Assembly: GCA_027604685.1 (NCBI GenBank)
Contig: JADHYX010000045.1
Span: 8,926-57,058 of the forward strand
DNA: 48,133 bases
Direction: 5' to 3'
From: Lobulomyces angularis
Taxonomy: Eukaryota > Chytridiomycota > Chytridiomycetes > Lobulomycetales > Lobulomycetaceae
The notes below the pieces were generated by a model. The model ran no database searches, had not been told where the DNA came from, and saw only the letters and a list, made by a program, of their open reading frames with translations. Shown one piece after another: positions 1 through 21,542 of the stretch. Positions within the stretch are counted from its first letter, which is position 1; each line of letters starts with the position of its first letter. Position numbers and translations under genes: made by a program.

Positions 1-55
1 AAAAAAAAAAATTCTAAAAAAAAAAAAAAAAAATATTTTAAAAAAAAAAATCAAG

Positions 56-1287
56 GTTTAATTGCAGATGGAATTATTGAAATGACGTTGGTTACTCCAC
101 AAGGGGAGATTAAAACTGTCAATAAAGACCTCGAACCGGAACTTTTTTGGGCCTTGAGAGGTTGTGGCAGTGGGAGCTTTGGGATCGTCACTACCTTTTT
201 AATGAAAGTCTTTCCTGATGAACAAGGACACTCAATGGTGACATACCATTTTCCATCTGAATCAGCCCACAGAGTATTAAAACAATACTCCGGCCATGCA
301 TCTTTATTACCCAACAATATTCACTGCTTGTTATATTTTGAGGCAGTTGTTGGTGGAGTGCAAGCCCTCCTCATCACAATTAATCGCATCGGTACTTTGG
401 AAGAACACAAAAAAGATCCAGCAATAATTAACTTTTTAAAATTATTTCCTACTCCCGAATCTACAGAGGAATTTTTTTTTACATCTCAAAATGACATGAT
501 TTATGAACCGGAAGGTAAAAATCGAATGGAATTTCTTACTAATAGGTTTTTTAATTTTTTTTTTTTTTTCTGAAAATTTTTATTTTTTTATTGAATGTTT
601 TTCTTAGAAACGCTACACATTATTCAGCTTTAGAAAAAACTGCTGGTCTATTAGTTGATGGTGAACTCAGTGACCTTGCTATATTTCAAATAATCAATGG
701 TCCTTGGATGCAAGGTTGAAAAAAAAAAAAAAAAATTTTATTTTTTATACTAATTAAAAATGAATATACTAGATCCATCCTTAGTGGGACAACCAATGTT
801 TATAATTTTTGAAAATATGGGGGGTAAGATTTCAACTCCAGAGACAGAAACTTGTTTCATTCATCGGTCCCCAACCTTACTCTCCCTCGAGCTTAACTTT
901 GAATGGGATGCCGCTTTTGAAAATGAAAAGAGGATTGACGCAATAAATAAATGGAGGCACTGCGTTTACCAACACACTTCTCAAAAAGTCTACAACAACT
1001 ATGTTTGGGCTACTGCAGATTTTGCTTCTTATTATGGCGATAATTTGAACAGATTAGTAGATTTAAAAAAAAGAGTTGATCCCGACAATATCTTTAAATT
1101 CGCAATTAGTATACCTACTGACATGAAGGATATAAATAGAGTTACCACTGCTAGAGATTACCAATGTTCACCTTTTCACAACCTCCTTCCTGATGGTGAA
1201 ATTAGTTCCTCTGCATTTTCCTCTTCTGTTCCGTTTAAATTAAGTAGATTTCTCTTCCTGTGTTTTCTTTTTTGGCTATCAATGTGA
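56..1287 (+). CDS. BBE-type FAD-linked oxidase, 5' part missing
   Basis: This is the C-terminal part of a berberine-bridge-enzyme-like flavoprotein oxidase (FAD_binding_4 plus BBE families); the upstream exons lie outside the window. Three exons are visible, with introns at about 546-607 and 715-772. The first exon reads through LFWALRGCGSGSFGIVTTF, a hallmark of this fold. The last exon holds the BBE segment (NNYVW, then a YYGDNLNRLVDLKKRVDPDN stretch and FKF). The coding sequence enters in phase after an AG at 54-55, matching the intron position in the paralogue at 19503-21542. The C terminus is a Ser-rich stretch followed by about 15 hydrophobic residues, which looks like a GPI-anchor or membrane-tail signal. 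A secreted, surface-bound carbohydrate or alcohol oxidase is likely, but the substrate cannot be read from sequence. The first 50 bases are nearly pure A, so the edge may be poorly assembled. Confidence 0.85.
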
Positions 1288-1724
1288 ACTTTTAAAAATT
1301 TTTTTATATTTTTTTCTTTCATTGTAGTTTATATAATTATTTTATATGTATTATTATCGTTTTTTTTTTAATTTATATGCATATTTTTTTTATTGTTTTT
1401 ATAAATTTGCAATATATATTATTTTTTATTAAAAAAAAAAAAAAAAAAAAATTTTTTTTAGATTATCATTAACTTTTGATATTTTATTTTTTGTTTTAAA
1501 AAATGTTTATATGAAAAAAAAAAAATTTATTTTGAAAAAATGAAAAAAAAAAATTTTTGTTAAATTGTGAAGAAATTTTTTTTTTTTTTAAATTGTAAAA
1601 GATATTTTTTATTTTTTTTTTTTAACGTTATAATTTGACTTTCTATTTTAAGTAAAATCAAAAAAAAAAAAAAAAAAAAAAATTTTTTTTGAAAATAAAC
1701 AAAAAAAAAACATAGTTTTTTGAA
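1288..1724. other. AT-rich gene-less spacer
   Basis: About 440 bp between the oxidase stop and the 3' end of the cysteine-rich peptide gene on the other strand. It is mostly A and T runs, including A runs near 1431 and 1662. I see no coding signal; both genes presumably end their transcripts here. Confidence 0.6.
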
Positions 1725-1961
1725 CTAATGACAACAACATGGTTTTTCACAGATCAAAGAGCAGAAACAACCCAATGCTTCATTATCACCAGAAGCAGTC
1801 TGCAATTAAAAAAATAATAATTAATATTAGTTAAAAAAAAAAAAAAACATTAATATATTTTTTCATACTTCACGTTTGGAGATAAGTCCACGACTTTGAG
1901 TAGTAGGAGCTAAAGTCAAAATAGCAGCAACGGAGATCAAAACTAATTTAGAAAATTGCAT
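1725..1961 (-). CDS. Small secreted cysteine-rich peptide precursor, 55 aa, two exons
   Basis: I do not recognise a family. Exon 1 (1961-1869) encodes 31 residues beginning MQFSKLVLISVAAILTLA, a clear signal peptide, then SRGLISKRE with a Lys-Arg dibasic site of the kind cut by Kex2/furin proteases. Intron 1868-1800 (69 nt) starts GTATGA and ends TTGCAG. Exon 2 (1799-1725) encodes 24 residues ending GCFCSLICEKPCCCH and a TAG stop. The mature part would be about 25 residues with six cysteines in the pattern C-x-C-x3-C-x4-C-C-C, enough for three disulfides. A TATAAAAG box lies 66 bp upstream of the start. Precursor layout (signal, short pro-region, dibasic site, Cys-rich core) is seen directly. 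A secreted effector, defence peptide or signal is inference. Without splicing the frame stops one codon past the donor, which is why the gene is easy to miss. Confidence 0.65.
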
Positions 1962-2026
1962 TATTTTTTTTTTTTTATTTTAATAACTTTTTTTTTTGTT
2001 ATTTTTTATCAGGAAAACTTCAGATT

Positions 2027-2034
2027 CTTTTATA
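2027..2034 (-). promoter_or_regulatory. TATA box of the cysteine-rich peptide gene
   Basis: TATAAAAG on the minus strand, ending 66 bp before the ATG at 1961. It is a perfect TATA consensus set in otherwise T-rich sequence and faces the peptide gene. No other gene start lies nearby. Confidence 0.5.
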
Positions 2035-2589
2035 CTTTTTTTTTTTTTCAATTAAAATTCAAGAATAATCCAAAAAGAAAAAAAAGCATTTTTTTTGGGA
2101 TTAGTTCTTTCTCCAAATGAATATACACCATTTGTCATTAAGAGCCATTCAGCACTATTATTAGTTATTAGAGAACCTTGAAAAAAGAAACTACCCTAAA
2201 TTTCTCTCAATTTCTTTGGCAATATCTTGGCTTTTGGTGGCATACCAGAAATGAACCCTGAAAAATAATTCATCGTAAGCATTCTATTTCCCTTTTTTTT
2301 TTATTTTTAATGCCAATATCTTTGCCAAAGGTTTATGCTAATATTTTTCGTTTTGAGCATAGTGGTTTGGTTCAAATTCCTTACTATATTTTTTTTTTTA
2401 ATATTGCCAAAAAAAAAAATTTTTTTTTTTTAAAAATACATCTTTAATTTTTAAACCAGTCTATTAGGAAACTAGTATAATTACAAAAAATTTTTTTTTT
2501 TAAAGTTGCAGAGCACATACCAATTTTGCTTCCCTGTAATTAATACGTTGTCTTTTACCTTACATTTCAATAAACTCTAGTTTTCTAAA
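2035..2589. other. Spacer with a possible coding relic
   Basis: No intact gene. On the minus strand two short open stretches look protein-like: one near 2180-2280 contains RVHFWYATKSQDIAKEIERN, and one near 2085-2180, in a different frame, contains EWLLMTNGVYSFGERTNP. They are separated by a frame change, so this may be a decayed gene. I cannot assign a family. Confidence 0.3.
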
Positions 2590-3070
2590 ATAAGTGGTAA
2601 GAATTAGAACCCAAGTTGTTTCACCATCAAACGTATACGAGACAGTTGTAAATACATATAGAGAAAATGGACGATGAGTGTCTCCAATTTAATCATCATA
2701 AACAACTGTCCAGTAAGACCTTCAAAGGTTCGATTTAACATCTGGAAAAAATTATATTTCAGTCAAGTGGAACCTTTTATATTTCTCATATAATGCTCTT
2801 GCGATTGCAGTTAAGGAATTAAGTTGATAACCATGCACACTACTCAGTTTAATTTTTCTTTAATACACTCTTTATCCCAAAAATATTTAATATTTCTTGG
2901 TCCAACATCAAAGTTTACACATAGTAGTTTGCTAACATCTTTATTAAAACTATAACTATTCCATATATCCACTATCACTTGAGCAATATGAGCTTTATTA
3001 ACATTAAGTCTAAAATAAGTTGATATTATAATTATTGTCTCAGATATAACATTTATTGAAGTAACTCTAT
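2590..3070 (-). pseudogene. Relic of the class C receptor ligand-binding domain
   Basis: The DNA aligns by eye with 7640-8180 of the intact receptor gene: GAGTGTCTCC, then CCAGTRAGNCCTTCAAA, TCAAGTGGAA, ATAATGCTCTTGC-like and GGTCCAACATCAAAGTTTACA blocks occur in the same order and strand. Every frame is interrupted by stops and indels, so it cannot encode the domain. The region corresponds to the exon just upstream of the EGF-like part. No transmembrane section follows it downstream. Confidence 0.75.
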
Positions 3071-3129
3071 TGCTAATTAGTCTTTAATTGAAGAAAGATT
3101 TTTTGAAAGTAAACCTTTTGGGAAGTTGC

Positions 3130-3620
3130 TATATATTTTTTAAAAAAAAATTAAAAATTTTGAATAAATATCATATTTTAGAAAATTTGAAATGAAATAA
3201 AAAATTTTTCATCATATTTTTAAGATAATTCTAACTTTATAATAATTTCTATTAATCATAACACACATAAACCTGAACCTGCCAACAAAAATTTTTTAAA
3301 AAAATAATTTTAAAAATAAAGAAATAAACAAAAAAAATATAGTGAAGAGTAAAAGAGGAAGAAAACCCAATGATGAGAAATTACTTTGTTGAAATGTAAA
3401 AGATTATTTAGAAATATTTACTGTGGCTCCGTTGCTGCTTTACTCAACTCTTCTACTAAGCTTTTCCACAATTTGATTTGTTCATCATCTTCGTCAACTT
3501 GCGCTATGTTATAATTTATATTTTTTTTCTTTTGAGTACCTGTGACTTTTTCCTCCACAAATATTCATAAATGTAATAGTTTCTTTTAAACAAACTTTTA
3601 TCGCCTGGGAAACTTCTTTT
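3130..3620 (-). pseudogene. Relic of the class C receptor C-terminal tail and 3' flank
   Basis: Aligns with about 5390-5890, covering the last intron, the last exon and the 3' flank of the intact receptor gene. The minus strand reads VDEDDEQIKLWKSLVEELSK, almost the same as the intact tail VDEDKEQIKLWKSLAEELSK, then reaches an early stop. The flanks share GAAAATTTGAAATGAAATAAA. Upstream exons are absent. It lies between the ligand-domain relic (2590-3070) and the intact gene, so it derives from a separate copy or from a rearranged one. Confidence 0.75.
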
Positions 3621-3969
3621 AAAGTGTAAGTCAAGCCTGCAGAAAAGCAATAAAATTTTTAACGTTTTGCAACATGAAGTATAAACAATTCTTTTCCATT
3701 TTTTTCTCCTAAATCCATTTTTATATACAAATGTAAAAAATTTAAATTCCAATAAAAACTAAAGAAGAAATAGCTCTTACATTTTGTTACATAAATAGTT
3801 CTAAATCAACCTGAAAAAAAAAAGTTTGACCATCCATTAAAATGTCTGTCCTTGGCTGCTCCTTTAAAATGAGCTTCCCAGGGTTTAGCTTTTTTTAATT
3901 TATTATTAGCAGTAAAATTTAATTAATTTTGTAAACACGGCTTGATAAAAATTTTGCATTCCATGAAGA

Positions 3970-3977
3970 TATAAAAA
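3970..3977 (+). promoter_or_regulatory. TATA box of the short secreted peptide gene
   Basis: TATAAAAA, 40 bp before the ATG at 4018, on the same strand as the peptide gene. It sits in the sequence GATATAAAAAGGT. Confidence 0.4.
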
Positions 3978-4017
3978 GGTAAAAATCCACAATTAAAGTA
4001 TACTGCAATTAGTAAAA

Positions 4018-4161
4018 ATGAAATTTCCAACTGCAATCATTCTCTTTTTTATTGCTACAGCATCTTGCGTTAATGCCGCTTCTGTCTCAAAATTAAGAAG
4101 TGAAAAATTTTTACTGGAAAAAAGACTTAATAATGGAAGTTACATTGAAAGACAATTCTAA
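4018..4161 (+). CDS. Short secreted peptide precursor, 47 aa
   Basis: A single-exon frame starts MKFPTAIILFFIATASCVNA, a strong signal peptide. It continues with SVSKLRSEKFLLEKR, contains a Lys-Arg site, and ends LNNGSYIERQF before a TAA stop. Kex2-type cutting would release an 11-residue linear peptide without cysteine. A TATA box lies 40 bp upstream. The start MKFP and the SEK-FLL block resemble the beginning of the CBM19-like protein at 10912 (MKFPSILQ, SEKKFLLAW). It could therefore be a truncated relative of that gene instead of a peptide gene in its own right. I recognise no family. Confidence 0.45.
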   Translation: MKFPTAIILFFIATASCVNAASVSKLRSEKFLLEKRLNNGSYIERQF

Positions 4162-5390
4162 AAACTACCTTGAAGATATTTACTGAAGAAACACTTTGTG
4201 GGTTTTTTTTTTTAGAAAGCTTGTATATAAAAATTAAATATATTGTATAAAATTCAAGTAAATTAGTATTCTTTTTATATATACTTTTAAACGAAGAAAT
4301 AAACAGTTTACACGAAACTTTGAACATTTATGTGCTTATTCTTCAGCACAATACGGCGCTAACTTTCAATTGCAAAAGGTCTAAATAAACTTACAGTTGA
4401 CTTTAAAGGATCTATGAATAATAGTTCGTTGATTCCAAACTATCCTTTTTTATTTATTGTTAGAATAAAATAAGAACTGAAATTTTTAATTTTTTTAATC
4501 ACAGTTTTGAACTACTAAAAAACAAAAATATTACTAAAGATATTAAAATAAATAAAACCTAACAGAAAAAATAATTAAGTTAAGCCATATCAGTAGGCAC
4601 TAAAATAAAAGTAGGCCACTTTTGAAAAATAGAATAAGATTGTTATTTAAAAATAAAAATTATACCAGAAGCAATAGAGATTGCAAGGTAGGTAAAAACT
4701 TAATAAACATAAACGTTATACGGCAAGATACAATTAAAACCAAGAATACGAATTACTACCTAAGCAATATTTTAATTGCAAAAACAAAATATGAAAAAAA
4801 AGGTTAAAAAGGATAAACTTTCTGGACTAGACTAATTAAGATTACGATATCATGTGTCTGCTGAATGAAAGGAATTCCATTTCAGAGTACTTTGAGAAAC
4901 TGCCTACAATTCATATTAAACAAATGAAAGTGTATTTCTTTTTTTTTGTAATTTTTTACTGCAATTAATTTATACTCTTATTAATTGCTTAGGTATTATT
5001 TCTTTTGTGATCGTTTTTCGTATTTTTATTTTAGTTGTATTTTACAGCTTTTAATTAGTTTTATTCACTTCACCTACAGCTTTTAATGTTACATGTATCA
5101 TTATTCATACTATTTTAATTTTTATTTAATTTTTAACCTAACAATCTCTATTACTTCTAATACATAAATATGACTAGGTAAACAAACAAACATTATTTTA
5201 TATAACTTTGGAAGTTTACTGCGGAAAGAACCGTATAATTTAAGCAAACTTGAGTATTCCTAAAATGTATTAAAGGGAGTGTAATGACCTGGAGAGTGTG
5301 ATACGTCAATGGGGAGATAACAACAGAAGATGAAATCACAGAAATAAGGGTATATTATTTTTAAATAACTTTTTTATTCTATTTTTCAAT
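4162..5390. other. Gene-less AT-rich spacer
   Basis: About 1.2 kb with no convincing coding frame on either strand. It has more balanced base composition than the poly-A/T spacers but no repeats or RNA signatures I can support. From about 5390 it shows similarity to the relic at 3130, as 3' flank of the receptor gene. Confidence 0.5.
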
Positions 5391-5659
5391 AGTGGAAAAA
5401 TTTGAATAAAAATCAAAACACAATGTATTAGAAATTTAGAAAATTTGAAATGAAATAAAATATTTTCATACTTTAAGTTAAAACTTGGGTTTTATAAAAA
5501 TTACTATAAATCACAATACACATAAAAACTAAAACTGCCAACAAATATTTAAAAAAAAATTATAATGAAAATAAAGAAATAAAACAAAAAAACTGTAGTG
5601 AAGAATAAAATGGGAACGAAAATTCAATAATCAGAAACACTTTATTGAGATGTAAAAGA

Positions 5660-8600
5660 TTATTTAGATATATTTACTGCGGCTCTGTTGCTACTTTTAC
5701 TTAACTCTTCTGCTAAGCTTTTCCACAATTTGATCTGTTCTTTATCTTCGTCAACAAGTAGAACTCTAATATTTATGTTCGGTTATAATTTATATTTTTT
5801 TTCTGTCGAGTACCTGTGACTTTCTCCTCCACAGATGATCATAAATTCAACAGTTTCTTTAAACAAACTTTCATCGTCACTATGGGCTGCAAATCCTTTT
5901 TCGTTTACATTGTTTTTGTTTGGTTCTAACTTTTTTAGTGTTTCATTGTTGAAGTTCATATTTCCAACTTTGTCCTCCACTTTTTTTGTTGGTTTGTACA
6001 CCAGCTTAGAGTTTTTGCCATTAATCTGAAAGCAGCTTAAAACTCGTTCTTCAATTTCTAATGAAACCATAGGGATCAAAGTGAACAAATTGGTTTTACG
6101 ATCATAGTAAGCTACTTTTCTTGTCCATTTTCCAAGCAATCCTGGGGTTAGGTGCGCAAAGTTACCCATTACTACTTCATTACCTAATTTCTTTATAGGA
6201 GTCAACGTTAGACTAGCAAAACTTGTAGAAACCGTGCCAATGGATTGGGATGACTTGTTTGGATCTGTTGATTTTCTACTTTTACTACTCAATACAAGAT
6301 ACAACTTTGGAATTACAATAAAAAATGTTGGAACTGAAAATAATAATGCAGACAGCATTCCAAAAATTGCTAAAATCAATGATTTATTTTAGATTTTTTA
6401 TTTTGGGAATTTTTTTTTTTTTTTACTTTACCTGTTTTTATTGTTTCTGAGTATTTCAAGTATTCAGCAACTGTTTGACATACCAAAATAAAGAAAATTA
6501 AATATGAAATAATGAAAGCCTTAGATTCTCTAAAGTCAGCCGGAACACTTTTACTTAACTGTGCTACAAGTAAGAACAATACCAACAAAAAAATGACTAA
6601 AAAAATAAAAAAATAAACAAAATTGATAATATGAAATTTAAAAAAAAAAGAAAAATAGAAATAAAATAATAAAAAAATTAGCCTTGACAGTAAAAGAAAA
6701 AAAATTACCATTTAATGCAATGATGATTAAACCCATAATTCCACCTACTTGAGTAGGTATAGTGCAAGCCAAATAAAAGTATTCCATATCAATGTCAGTC
6801 ATTGTTTTAGTTGAAGGAATGTCTGACAAAATTGAAATTATCAGTCCTATTGTAGAAATTGCAACAAAAAATAACATAATCATCATCAGTTTTTTAAATG
6901 TTATTATTGTTGAAGATGACACAGAAGTAGGTCTTTCAAAGATGTAATACACTCTCCAACTACGAATAAATAATGATGAAAGTATCAATGTCAACCCTAA
7001 TAAATAAAGTTTGTTATTCATAAAGCTTCGTTTTTATGTTAATAAGAATACCTATTATATACAGAATGTACTTTAAAGTGCAAGTAGCTATACTCGGAAA
7101 GATCATTCCAGTTACTACTCCAGCATGTCCAATTACTGATCCTAGAATTGTGAACTGTAATAGATCCAATCCAAACTTCTTCACCTTGGTAAAAGAGCTG
7201 TACTTTAAGCCAATAAATGCAACAACAGCTCCAACTGCTAAAACAACATTTGTTACTCCAATAATTCCATTATAGATTTGATATGTAATTCCTGGGGTCT
7301 TTGAATAATTGTAAATAAATATTTCAAAATTTTTGTATTTTCTACCTGCAGCTCTAAAGAATACATAGAACAATCTTGTCCATAATAATTTTTTTGACAC
7401 TTGCAGACATTGGGAGAAATACATTCACCATATCCGCAAGGTGTTTGACACACTGGTACAGTGCAGTCCAATTGTTTATTTTGAAACAAGGTAACGTCCC
7501 TAGTATACCCTTCATTACAGATACATTGCAACGGAAGAGCACAAGTTCCATTTCCACAATTAGCTGGACATGATACTCCAGTAGGTATATCAGTACTGTT
7601 GAGAGAAAATTTAATAGCCATGTTTTCTAATATTGTTTAAGCATTAGTATGATATTGTCTGTTTATTATTTTACTCAGTGACAAGTTCCCAATATGAGAA
7701 ACCGGGTCCCAAGTTACTTCTCCAGCATATTCATCAAATACATTATTATAAACATTTATATAAAATGGTGGTTGAGTGTCTCCGTTTTGATCAAAAATCA
7801 ACTTTCCAGTGAGTCCTTCAAAAGATTGATTTCGCATAGCAGAATAGAGTGTTTTTCCGTCAAGTGGAATCTTCTTAATATAGAGTATATCATGTAATGC
7901 TCTTGCTATGGTACTAAGGCAATCAACTTGAAAACTATGCACCTGACGCATTTTAATCTGTTTATTATGCACTTTTTCCCAAAAATCTTTAATGTCATTT
8001 GGTCCAACATCAAAGTTTACATATGGTATAGTGCTGATGTCTCCATTGAAGCTGTTCCACGTATCCGTTATATGTTGTGCAATATCAGTTCTATTCATAT
8101 TTAGGTACATAGAAGAAGACATTGAATAAAAGACTGCCTGGCTGTATTCCTTCGGAACATAATAGTCAAAATCCAACATTGGGGTAAATTCAAGAAACCA
8201 ATTGTAAGGTTCATTGAATAGACCTACATGTGAATTGAGAAAATTGGTTGATGATAAGTATAAAAGTAATTTGTATTACCTTTTTTAATCCCATATTCAT
8301 ATAAAACTTTAGCGTCAAATCTACCAGCAACATCCATAACATTTGAAATTATAACGTTCACTCCTGTTTTTGATATTATGTCAAGTTGGTGTGAAAAATC
8401 CATTTCACCTTTTGATAATAGGCATTACAAATTATATTTAGTTTCAAATGAAACCGTTATATTCTGTATATATTTACCAGTTTTCAATATTATATTAGCC
8501 ACAATTGTAATATTAAGTCGGTTTGCTAGAGTATAGAAGTCATCGGAAAAGGGGAATTGATCTGTAGATATTGCTATTATATGTTTAAACTTAAAGAAGT

Positions 8601-9530
8601 TCACAGTATTTAAAAGTGCTATTGCATGTAATGTACTCGTAGGCGTCGTTCTATAATGGTTTTTAGTTTTATAACAATTTCTATTGTAACTACCTCATAA
8701 AGTAAGGATATGCTCGTTTATTTGAAAGTTTAGAAGCAGATGCAGTTCCCGAAATCATGGGAATTTCAAAAGCTCCAGCTATAACAGCATCTACAGCTGC
8801 CGATTCACTTTTTTCAGTGCATTAATAAATTGTGGATTAATTAAAATTTTGTACTTTTAATAATTGCAAATTTTACCTACAATCAGGACCATGTATTGCA
8901 ATGTAGGATGAATTTGATAATATATCCATAGTACTTTTGGCAGAAATGACACTACTGCAATTAGAAGCAAAAGGTGCAAGTATAAGAGTTGTGTTTGGAA
9001 GAATTGTTGAGTCATTGTTAAGAACTGTCATATAAAATATTGATGAAGCTACGGCAGCTGTTACATAAGTCCCACTATATAAGAATTAATACGAAGTTTT
9101 ATTAGATATTAATTGATACGTGTTATCATATAGTCCAGCAATGCTTAAGGTTGAAGGATAAATATAAACCTGTCTTTCTAACACCAACTCGTCTTCAAAA
9201 TAAACTTCCAAATTATCATATCCATGTACTGAACCATCATTTCCATATGAAAAAGGATCAGGAAACTCCACAACACCAGTATCTTTAATTAGTGTTTCGA
9301 ATGTTCTAGGCTTTAGCTTTTTTGAAACAAGTCTTACACTCCCAGTATTAACAGGTGCTTTAACAGAAAGAAAAAACTCATGAGTGCTAACTATCTCAGA
9401 AGGTAAATTTGAAGTCCATTCCCACTGAGCACTTGCGTTTAGCAAGATCACTAATGTTTATGAGGTATTAAGTGATCACAGTTATTAATTTACTTAAAAT
9501 ATATCCCCATAATTTGATCTTAAAATTCAT
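5660..9530 (-). CDS. Class C (GABA-B-like) 7TM receptor with binding-protein ectodomain and EGF-like region
   Basis: About 1,050 residues over some 13 exons. Exon 1 (9530-9494) gives a signal peptide, MNFKIKLWGYILMILLNASA once joined to exon 2 across a 43-nt intron. Next comes an ANF/periplasmic-binding type ligand domain (AGLYDN, LAPFASNCSS, IAIHGPDC, FEIPMISGTASASKLSNK, PYFMRTTPT). A Cys-rich stretch at 7600-7370 follows with EGF-like spacing (CPANCGNGTCALPLQCICNEG and CGYGECISPNVCKCQKNYYG). Seven hydrophobic segments come next; SLFIRSWRVYYIF after TM3 is a class C signature. The cytoplasmic tail ends at the TAA at 5660-5662. Family 3 receptors are dimeric G-protein-coupled sensors of small ligands at the plasma membrane. 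Ligand and coupling are unknown here. Degraded copies lie downstream. The start is chosen because it is the only ATG giving a signal peptide in frame. Confidence 0.85.
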
Positions 9531-19502: not shown

Positions 19503-21542
19503 TTAATATAACTTAGTTAAACCAAATATGAGACAAAAAAAGAAACAAAAAATAATTAAAATATAAAAAATAAAAAAATAAAAGTAAAAATCATAATTCT
19601 TGTCATTCAGTTGAACTACTTCACCTTGTAAAAGGGGAAAAAACCTTTCATTATTCACACCAATTTTCATTTGTTTTGCATAAGATACTGGTAGACTTTT
19701 GGCAAATTTAAATAAATTAGTGGGATCATATTTCATTTTTAATTTAATTAATCTAGCAGCATTTTTTTCATAATAATTAAGAGGGTTTGCTAAATAAAAT
19801 TTAAAAAAATAAATAAATTTAATTTTAATGGTTACCTGCATTCCAAACATAATTATTATATATTTCTGAACTGATTAGAGGATACAATTTACTATGCCAC
19901 CTTTCTAACGCAATAAATCTATCTATTACTTCCTTCTCTGAGAGAGTGGATTTATTTACGCTAAGTTTCACTTCCAGACTTAAGAGATTCTTAGATCTGT
20001 GAATAAAACATGTTTCTATGACCGGATTAGCAATTTTCCCACCCAAAGTATTTAGTGAAAAAAATAATTTTCCTTCATTAAAAAACACTTTAAATTGTAT
20101 TAATGTGAATGCATTAAAAAAAAAAAAACCATTTTTCAACGGTTCACCGAGAATAATGCTAATTGCATCATCACTTAAAGTATCATCTACCAACAGACCC
20201 ATCACCTTCTCCAGTATAGTACTTTCAACAGCATTTTTACTTGATATGTTGTCAAATCTATCTGCATAAATGAAATCCCTTTGTGTATGATAATACTCGA
20301 ATTTTTTTTTTTTAAATTTTGGAAATTTTTTTAAAAAGTGTAAAATTGCAGTGTCTGCTATGTATCCTTTTAAATTTCCAACTCGATTAATACCGATAAA
20401 AAGTGTTGTGATTTTATTTTTTTCAAATTCAAAGTTCAGTGTCGTATGTACATTCTTAGGGAGCAGTACTGAGTGTTTAGAAAAAAGCTTTAATATTGTA
20501 GATACATTGGATAAGGGAAAGTGGTATTTAGAAAAGACGTGCCCAGTTTCTGGATATATCTTTACAGTAAAAATTGTGACTATTCCAAAGTTTCCTGCCC
20601 CACAACCTAAAATTAAATATTGCATTAGAATCAATACCATTTTTAAGATACTTTTTTTGTTTTACTTTATACCTCGAAGCACCCAAAATAGATCAGGGTC
20701 TGTAAATTGGTTAACTGTACGTATTATACCATCAGCTGTTACCACTTGCATTTCAATTATATTATCCGAAGCAAACGCTATAGACAAGCAATTTAATTAT
20801 TTTTCAAAAAGGTAATACTTACCAAAAAATCTTGGACTATAACCAAACCCTCCTCCAAGAAGATATCCACCAATTCCAGCATTAGAAGATGATCCGCCTA
20901 TTGAAGAATTAAAAATTTTTAGAATAACTTTATTACCTGCAAATAAAAGATTGAATTTTTTTAAAACCCAGTTTACATTTTTAAGCTATAAAGAAATAAA
21001 ATAAAATATAAAATAAATGCTTAAGTTTAGAAATTTTATAAAACCTTTTGACCAGATCCCACATTTATTGTTTTTGTGTTATTATTTACTTCAAGTTGAT
21101 TAAATTTTACTAAATCTATAATAACATCACTGGAAAGTGAATCTTTATAAAAAAAGTAATAATATTAATAAAAATAAACGTATTCCTAAGAAAAGGTTAG
21201 TGTTTACTTTCCAATGAGTGACCTCCACTTCTAGCTGTAATGCTTAAGTTGAAAGCTTTGGCGCAACTAATCACTTTGGATACTAAAATTTTTAAAAATT
21301 CCTTTAAATATAACACATAAAAAGAGAGAAATTTAACCTTCTTTAGCATTACTTGGAAAAGTAAACACTATTGGTTGATAAGCCTTTCCGTATGGGTCAA
21401 AATTATAATCAATTGCCTTTTGGTAACTTTCACAGCCTTTAAAAATAGTATCTATATCAATAAGGCACCCTTTAAATATCGATAAAGAGTATTTCTGGCC
21501 AACAAGAATCCTAATTAATAAAAGGAAGTTGAAAAGATTCAT
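19503..21542 (-). CDS. BBE-type FAD-linked oxidase with C-terminal membrane tail
   Basis: Paralogue of the oxidase at the left edge, here complete at about 500 residues in roughly ten exons. Signal peptide MNLFNFLLLIRILVG. FAD-binding motif TARSGGHS contains the His that is covalently bound to flavin in this family. The usual partner Cys in the loop before GGG is missing: the sequence is GGSSSNAGIGGYLLGGGFGY. It is therefore probably mono-covalent. LRGCGAGNFGIVTIFTVK and the BBE end (NNYVWNA, then KLKMKYDPTNLFKF) follow. The last about 30 residues are almost all Phe, Ile, Leu and Tyr, a likely membrane anchor. The intron at 20088-20129 (42 nt) has no in-frame stop. The final gene end faces POL1 26 bp away, so the two are convergent with very little spacer. 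Substrate unknown. Confidence 0.85.

What the first reader, a model, noticed from the sequence alone, without database searches (positions are those of the whole stretch)
1725..1961. Hidden two-exon gene for a Kex2-type cysteine-rich secreted peptide
Splicing a 69-nt intron joins a signal peptide and a SKRE dibasic site to a 15-residue core with six cysteines (C-x-C-x3-C-x4-CCC). A consensus TATA box sits 66 bp upstream. The spacing, with three adjacent cysteines at the end, matches no family that I can name. Each exon alone is far below usual gene-calling length, so such genes are easily missed. It could be an effector, antimicrobial or mating/quorum signal.
Basis: partly seen in the sequence, partly recalled or inferred. 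Interest (0 to 1): 0.8.

Follow-up and report, generated by a model that had tools for sequence, protein, structure and literature searches.

The report
Orphan cysteine-rich secreted peptide gene, chytrid
A tiny two-exon gene of the chytrid fungus Lobulomyces angularis probably makes a secreted, enzyme-trimmed peptide with six cysteines; it is already listed as a hypothetical protein, no relative of it was found, and it looks like one more of the many one-species secreted peptides of fungi.

Summary
On the minus strand, 1961-1869 and 1799-1725 join across a 69-nt GT...AG intron to a 55-aa protein: a hydrophobic signal-like N-terminus, an ISKR-E dibasic site and a tail with six cysteines. The spacing is C-x-C-x3-C-x3-CCC, not x4. 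It is not hidden: the same protein is in NCBI as HDU92_005908 of Lobulomyces angularis, the only hit among 5.77 billion proteins. Chance is a poor explanation: random sequence of like composition gave such precursors 21 times in 1206 Mb, about 0.0008 per window but 0.36 per 20.8-Mb genome. Both exons (37-39% GC) stand out of 9-15% GC DNA, with the borders at the splice sites. The genome encodes a kexin. No paralogue, Pfam or NCBIfam match was found, and no PDB match better than E 1. Codon statistics do not support exon 2; expression and conservation are untested. Best reading: a real, lineage-specific small secreted cysteine-rich peptide, cut by kexin and closed by three disulfides, of unproven role: a new member of the ordinary fungal class of orphan small secreted proteins.

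The parts
1869..1961 (-). exon 1: ATG, signal-like hydrophobic stretch, short pro-region, ISKR-E (residues 1-31)
   Evidence: GC 0.366; same protein in NCBI
1893..1961 (-). signal-peptide-like segment, residues 1-23 (cleavage after TQS judged by eye from the -3,-1 rule; no SignalP here)
   Evidence: crude hydrophobicity rule passed, mean 3.16, whose own best cut was after residue 16; helix 3-17 in a low-confidence model
1872..1883 (-). Kex2-type site ISKR, residues 27-30 (P4 Ile, P2 Lys, P1 Arg)
   Evidence: sequence; Kex2 preferences in PMC8528282 passages
1800..1868 (-). intron, 69 nt, GTATGA ... ACTAAT ... TTGCAG, GC 0.10, phase 0
   Evidence: compared with 7 introns placed in kexin and BBE genes, 47-62 nt
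1725..1799 (-). exon 2 with stop: TASGDNEALGCFCSLICEKPCCCH
   Evidence: GC 0.387
1728..1769 (-). cysteine core, residues 42-55, C-x-C-x3-C-x3-CCC-H
   Evidence: the only exact match in six frames of the held DNA
2027..2034 (-). TATAAAAG, putative TATA box, 66-73 nt upstream of the ATG

Best explanation
A real, lineage-specific gene, with no second copy found, for a small secreted cysteine-rich peptide of the chytrid Lobulomyces angularis. Inferred path: signal peptidase removes about 23 residues; the six cysteines are oxidised in the secretory pathway; kexin cuts after ISKR and removes a seven-residue pro-segment (RGLISKR); the 25-residue acidic peptide ETASGDNEALGCFCSLICEKPCCCH is secreted. 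Neighbouring cysteines pair poorly with each other (recalled chemistry), so the three cysteines of C-x-C-x3-C most likely each bond to one of the terminal CCC, making a stapled hairpin. Shown: sequence anatomy, splice signals, non-random composition, a kexin gene in the genome, no relative detected. Inferred: expression, processing, disulfides, secretion, and an extracellular role in interaction or competition with other microbes or as a surface peptide (the role itself is a guess, about 0.3 given the rest).
For: Same 55-aa model in NCBI/nr. Chance rate 21 in 1206 Mb with loose splicing, 0 in 96 Mb with strict splicing. GC islands coincide with the two exons. Intron length and GC (69 nt, 0.10) near those of 7 introns placed in kexin and the neighbouring BBE gene (47-62 nt, GC 0.10-0.20). 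TATA box with 0.08 expected per 100 nt. ISKR fits Kex2 P1/P2/P4 preferences. One exon of the kexin gene matches yeast Kexin at E 2.7e-59, a P-domain match lies about 0.9 kb away on the same strand, and Asp, His, Asn and Ser motifs are read in the joined exons.
Against: No transcript, peptide or conservation evidence. Dicodon score of exon 2 -17.9 bits (94% of 1586 non-coding windows score at least as high) and of the spliced CDS -20.9; the opposite strand of exon 2 has a frame at +6.1. Synonymous codon use is undecided: P 0.13 against background codons, P 0.32 against coding codons. The NCBI model may rest on the same sequence features. About 0.36 such precursors are expected by chance in the whole genome. 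No homologue or paralogue was found, with searches that need shared short words. AlphaFold model without alignment is poor, pLDDT 57.4.
Confidence: 0.62

Rival explanations
1. Chance reading: no functional gene; an automatic gene caller and the reader both picked a short ORF pair in AT-rich DNA.
For: 55 aa, no homologue or paralogue found; dicodon score negative; codon usage undecided; about 0.36 such precursors expected per genome by chance.
Against: 0.0008 expected per window; GC islands match the exon borders; TATA box and a splice site set with branch-like motif.
Confidence: 0.22
2. Extracellular metal-binding peptide: CxC and CCCH with an acidic tail bind Cu or Zn outside the cell or in the secretory path, like a secreted metallothionein.
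For: 6 Cys and 1 His in the last 14 residues, C-x-C and CCC clusters, acidic N-terminal part.
Against: Signal-like start and kexin site point to the oxidising secretory path, where the thiols would form disulfides; metallothioneins as recalled are cytosolic; no family match.
Confidence: 0.1
3. Secreted signal (mating or quorum peptide) made from a Kex2-cut precursor.
For: Signal-like start and Kex2 site as in alpha-factor-type precursors; a second small KR precursor 2 kb away and a class C receptor gene nearby.
Against: One core only, against at least 3 repeats in the published KEP definition; six cysteines; no test of activity; the layout of the second precursor arises 2.7 times per Mb by chance.
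Confidence: 0.05
4. Precursor of a modified peptide (RiPP) in a cluster with the neighbouring berberine-bridge-type oxidase.
For: A BBE-type gene ends at 1287, convergent and about 440 bp away; 3 PF08031 matches were found in the genome (a lower bound by the tool's own note), 2 of them in this window.
Against: No UstYa match (but no control rang, so weak); the BBE 5' part and the rest of the contig upstream are withheld; no repeats.
Confidence: 0.03

Closest known systems
Fungal small secreted proteins (SSPs), cysteine-rich sub-group
   Same: Under 300 aa, signal-like N-terminus, no known domain or relative, cysteine-rich (definition in PMC7105643, abstract and passages)
   Different: Very short (55 aa precursor, 25 aa product inferred); no function known; from a chytrid, whose saprobic lifestyle is recalled
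Kex2-processed pro-domain (K2PP) effectors
   Same: N-terminal pro-segment ended by a KR site (PMC8528282, passages)
   Different: Those are effectors of plant pathogens; here no host interaction is known
Kex2-processed repeat proteins (KEPs), including alpha-type pheromone and ustiloxin precursors
   Same: Signal peptide and Kex2 site
   Different: One core, no repeats; KEPs need at least 3 repeats (PMC7329392, passages)
Disulfide-rich venom-type peptides such as conotoxins (recalled, no call)
   Same: Pre-pro-peptide layout with basic site and a cysteine framework at the C-terminus
   Different: No related PDB sequence; no common origin suggested

Membership tests
Fungal small secreted proteins (SSP) | under 300 aa | tested here: met
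   55 aa
Fungal small secreted proteins (SSP) | signal peptide | tested here: inconclusive
   hydrophobic start passes a crude rule; SignalP not available
Fungal small secreted proteins (SSP) | no known domain (typical, not required) | tested here: met
   no Pfam or NCBIfam match listed at E 10
Fungal small secreted proteins (SSP) | found outside the cell | not testable with these tools
   needs secretome mass spectrometry
K2PP effectors | canonical Kex2 motif in the first half after a disordered pro-segment | tested here: inconclusive
   KR at residues 29-30 of 55, at the middle; pLDDT under 50 at 24-29 and 31-36 fits disorder but the model is poor
K2PP effectors | effector activity on a host | not tested
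   no host known from any call
KEPs (Kex2-processed repeat proteins) | at least 3 tandem repeats of at least 8 aa between Kex2 sites | tested here: not met
   one core; definition
Dikaritin-type RiPP | UstYa (DUF3328) gene near the precursor gene | tested here: inconclusive
   0 matches in the genome, but no control genome rang
Metallothionein | cytosolic, no signal peptide (recalled) | tested here: not met
   signal-like start, crude test only
Kexin substrates | kexin present and site fits P1 Arg, P2 Lys, P4 aliphatic | tested here: met
   cleavage itself not shown

The most novel reading that the evidence does not exclude
A disulfide framework that I know of in no described family, in which C-x-C-x3-C is stapled onto a terminal CCC in a 14-residue core, made by an early-diverging fungus through the kexin route and acting outside the cell, so that the 'pre-pro-cysteine-framework' design of animal venom peptides also arose in chytrids. 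Nothing found here excludes it: no relative in 5.77 billion proteins, none in PDB.
Probability: 0.15. Interest if true: 0.5.

Novelty: new member of a known kind. Interest (0 to 1): 0.25.

Why it matters
If expressed, it is a clean, very short test case for how orphan secreted peptides arise in chytrids, and its cysteine pattern (three separate plus three adjacent) poses a simple folding question. As it stands it is one of many orphan small secreted proteins of fungi, and it is already in the public annotation.

Tried and rejected
Paralogues: protein searches of the own genome found the locus itself only. A DNA search with 561 bases of the locus gave 181 matches, not all of them listed; apart from the locus itself the listed ones fall on the A/T-rich flanks, the intron or exon ends. 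The one among the ten fetched that reaches far into exon 2 (L026) was aligned again: it is a run of T-rich sequence without the cysteine codons (5 loci looked at: L021, L023, L025, L026, L027). Judged low-complexity. Sister species: a DENR query meant to show which chytrids the protein database holds scored nothing at E 1e-10 among 41 candidates, so absence of relatives in sister species is not established. Coding statistics: the dicodon score gives no support (negative; its coding yardstick was scored on its own training ORFs), synonymous codons are undecided. Ab initio intron finding was too sparse or noisy (2 candidates, 20) and was replaced by 7 introns placed by hand. Non-coding RNA: no Rfam match at E 1 in 1000-6000. 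Structure: model too poor for a fold search, so none was run. A RiPP with the BBE neighbour and a pheromone role were considered and set low. The plus-strand ORF from 1728 across the same place (about 35 aa, read) was considered and has no support beyond the dicodon frame.

Full report
What is there. The finding lies on the minus strand. Exon 1 is 1961-1869, the intron 1868-1800 (69 nt), exon 2 1799-1725 with TAG. The joined frame gives 55 residues: MQFSKLVLISVAAILTLAPTTQSRGLISKRETASGDNEALGCFCSLICEKPCCCH. Without splicing the frame stops at the second codon of the intron, after 32 residues. TATAAAAG ends 66 nt before the ATG, as stated.

Where it is from. A search of 5,772,631,384 proteins returned one candidate, the same 55-aa protein, named hypothetical protein HDU92_005908 of Lobulomyces angularis, a chytrid of the Lobulomycetales. 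The gene is therefore not hidden; a public annotation already holds this splice model. I could not see on what evidence that model rests. One paper in the library holds the species name with 'genome' (listing only), and none of the listings I saw was about this gene; that is not a proof that nothing is in print.

Is it more than chance? I scanned order-4 Markov sequence with the composition of the held DNA (21 pieces, 238,672 bases, 24,055 of them N) for precursors with a signal-like start, a [KR]R site and at least six cysteines in a tail of at most 45 residues, in one or two exons. With any GT..[CT]AG intron of 45-130 nt, 21 arose in 1206 Mb (13 with six, 5 with seven, 3 with eight cysteines). 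That is 0.0174 per Mb, 0.0008 per window and 0.36 per 20.8-Mb genome. With a stricter donor and a branch-like motif, none with six arose in 96 Mb, and two with five. The real DNA held gave one, this gene. The filter was designed after seeing the case, so these figures flatter it, and the signal-peptide rule is crude. Exact C-x-C-x3-C-x3-CCC occurs once in six frames of the held DNA, while 17 overlapping 13-mers at six places have six or more cysteines, so dense cysteines alone are not rare.

Composition. GC is 0.092 in 1288-1724, 0.387 in exon 2, 0.101 in the intron, 0.366 in exon 1 and 0.151 in 1962-2100. Windows of 75 nt at 0.37 or more make up 6.4% of 3165 windows outside ORFs of 60 codons and 21% of 8499 inside. 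Two such islands separated by a GT-AG intron are good evidence for a two-exon gene.

Intron. I placed seven introns by hand for comparison, five in kexin and two in the neighbouring BBE-type gene. The first two kexin introns border the stretch aligned to yeast Kexin; the other three rest on an open frame and on recalled kexin sequence, and the two in BBE on an open frame and comparison by eye with the second BBE gene. They are 47-62 nt long with GC 0.10-0.20, donors GTTTTT three times, GTATTT, GTAGTT, GTAAAA and GTTGAA, and acceptors ending in AAG once and TAG six times. The peptide's intron (69 nt, GC 0.10, GTATGA...TTGCAG) is slightly longer and is the only one of the eight with CAG; it has the CTAAT branch-like motif, which one of the seven has. 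It fits loosely.

Evidence that does not help or speaks against. A dicodon model trained on 33 long ORFs scores the spliced CDS at -20.9 bits and exon 2 at -17.9, below most non-coding windows, while one frame of the opposite strand scores +6.1; exon 1 (its last 25 codons, -3.9) is like non-coding too (37% of the null at or above). Cysteine makes up 1.05% of the training codons, so a cysteine-rich peptide must score badly; still, this is no support. Synonymous codon choice is undecided: P 0.13 against background, P 0.32 against coding usage. No relative was found in which selection could be measured, and my check of database coverage with a conserved protein failed. AlphaFold from the single sequence gave pLDDT 57.4, with a helix at 3-17 and a weak pairing of 42-43 with 53-54.

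Processing. The genome has a kexin: subtilase and P-domain matches lie on contig C3 at 165322-165771 and 164326-164439, the latter with one stop in the unspliced frame; one exon matches yeast Kexin at E 2.7e-59, better than furin at 2.2e-48; and the joined exons carry DDGLD, HGTRCAG, GNGG and GGTSAAAP stretches. Published preferences are P1 Arg, P2 Lys, P4 Leu or another aliphatic residue (PMC8528282, passages). ISKR fits.

Most likely mechanism. Signal peptidase, oxidation, kexin cut, secretion of a 25-residue acidic peptide. Adjacent cysteines pair poorly with each other (established chemistry, recalled), so the three separate cysteines probably bond to the terminal three. The role outside the cell is open. 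The negative charge speaks against a membrane-lytic antimicrobial peptide; competition or surface interaction, metal binding and signalling all remain.

Comparison with known kinds. By published definition fungal small secreted proteins are under 300 aa with a signal peptide and are mostly orphans (PMC7105643, abstract and passages). The gene fits, with the signal peptide tested by a crude rule only. It is not a KEP: these need at least three repeats (PMC7329392, passages); chytrids do have KEPs, 178 in 14 of 19 strains surveyed, and a second survey also lists some (PMC6339444, passages). It resembles K2PP effectors in layout, but no effector activity is known. No Pfam or NCBIfam match was listed at E 10; the best PDB match of the precursor was at E 1 to an ATPase subunit, outside the cysteine core, and the 25-mer had none. 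UstYa gave no match, without a ringing control.

Verdict. A probable real gene, correctly read but for one spacing, already annotated, without relatives found, of a kind that is common in fungi. Interest is modest until expression is shown.

Noticed in passing
window 4018-4161 (+): A 47-aa ORF with a signal-like start and LLEKR followed by the 11-residue tail LNNGSYIERQF, an alpha-factor-like layout; no database candidate, no paralogue found, coding-like synonymous codons (P 0.0018 against background), but such layouts arise 2.7 times per Mb by chance.
   Followed up: partly
window about 5783-9457 (-): A class C type receptor gene in pieces: ANF_receptor (7637-8179), EGF-like (7253-7621) and 7tm_3 (6641-7021) matches.
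   Followed up: partly
window 2604-3590 (-): Decayed-looking second copy of the receptor region: 2859-2951 is 76% identical to 7961-8053, and three stretches within 3383-3589 are 88-92% identical to stretches within 5639-5863.
   Followed up: partly
window 1-1287 (+) and 19503-20640 (-): Two berberine-bridge-type (BBE) genes in one window; 3 PF08031 matches were found in the whole genome, a lower bound.
   Followed up: partly
L030 (C45:1-8925): The stretch just upstream of the window reads N throughout, so the start of the first BBE gene and its neighbours are unseen.
   Followed up: no
L010, window 1-1287: Introns placed in this chytrid are short and AT-rich with loose donors such as GTTTTT, unlike the usual GTAAGT (recalled).
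   Followed up: partly
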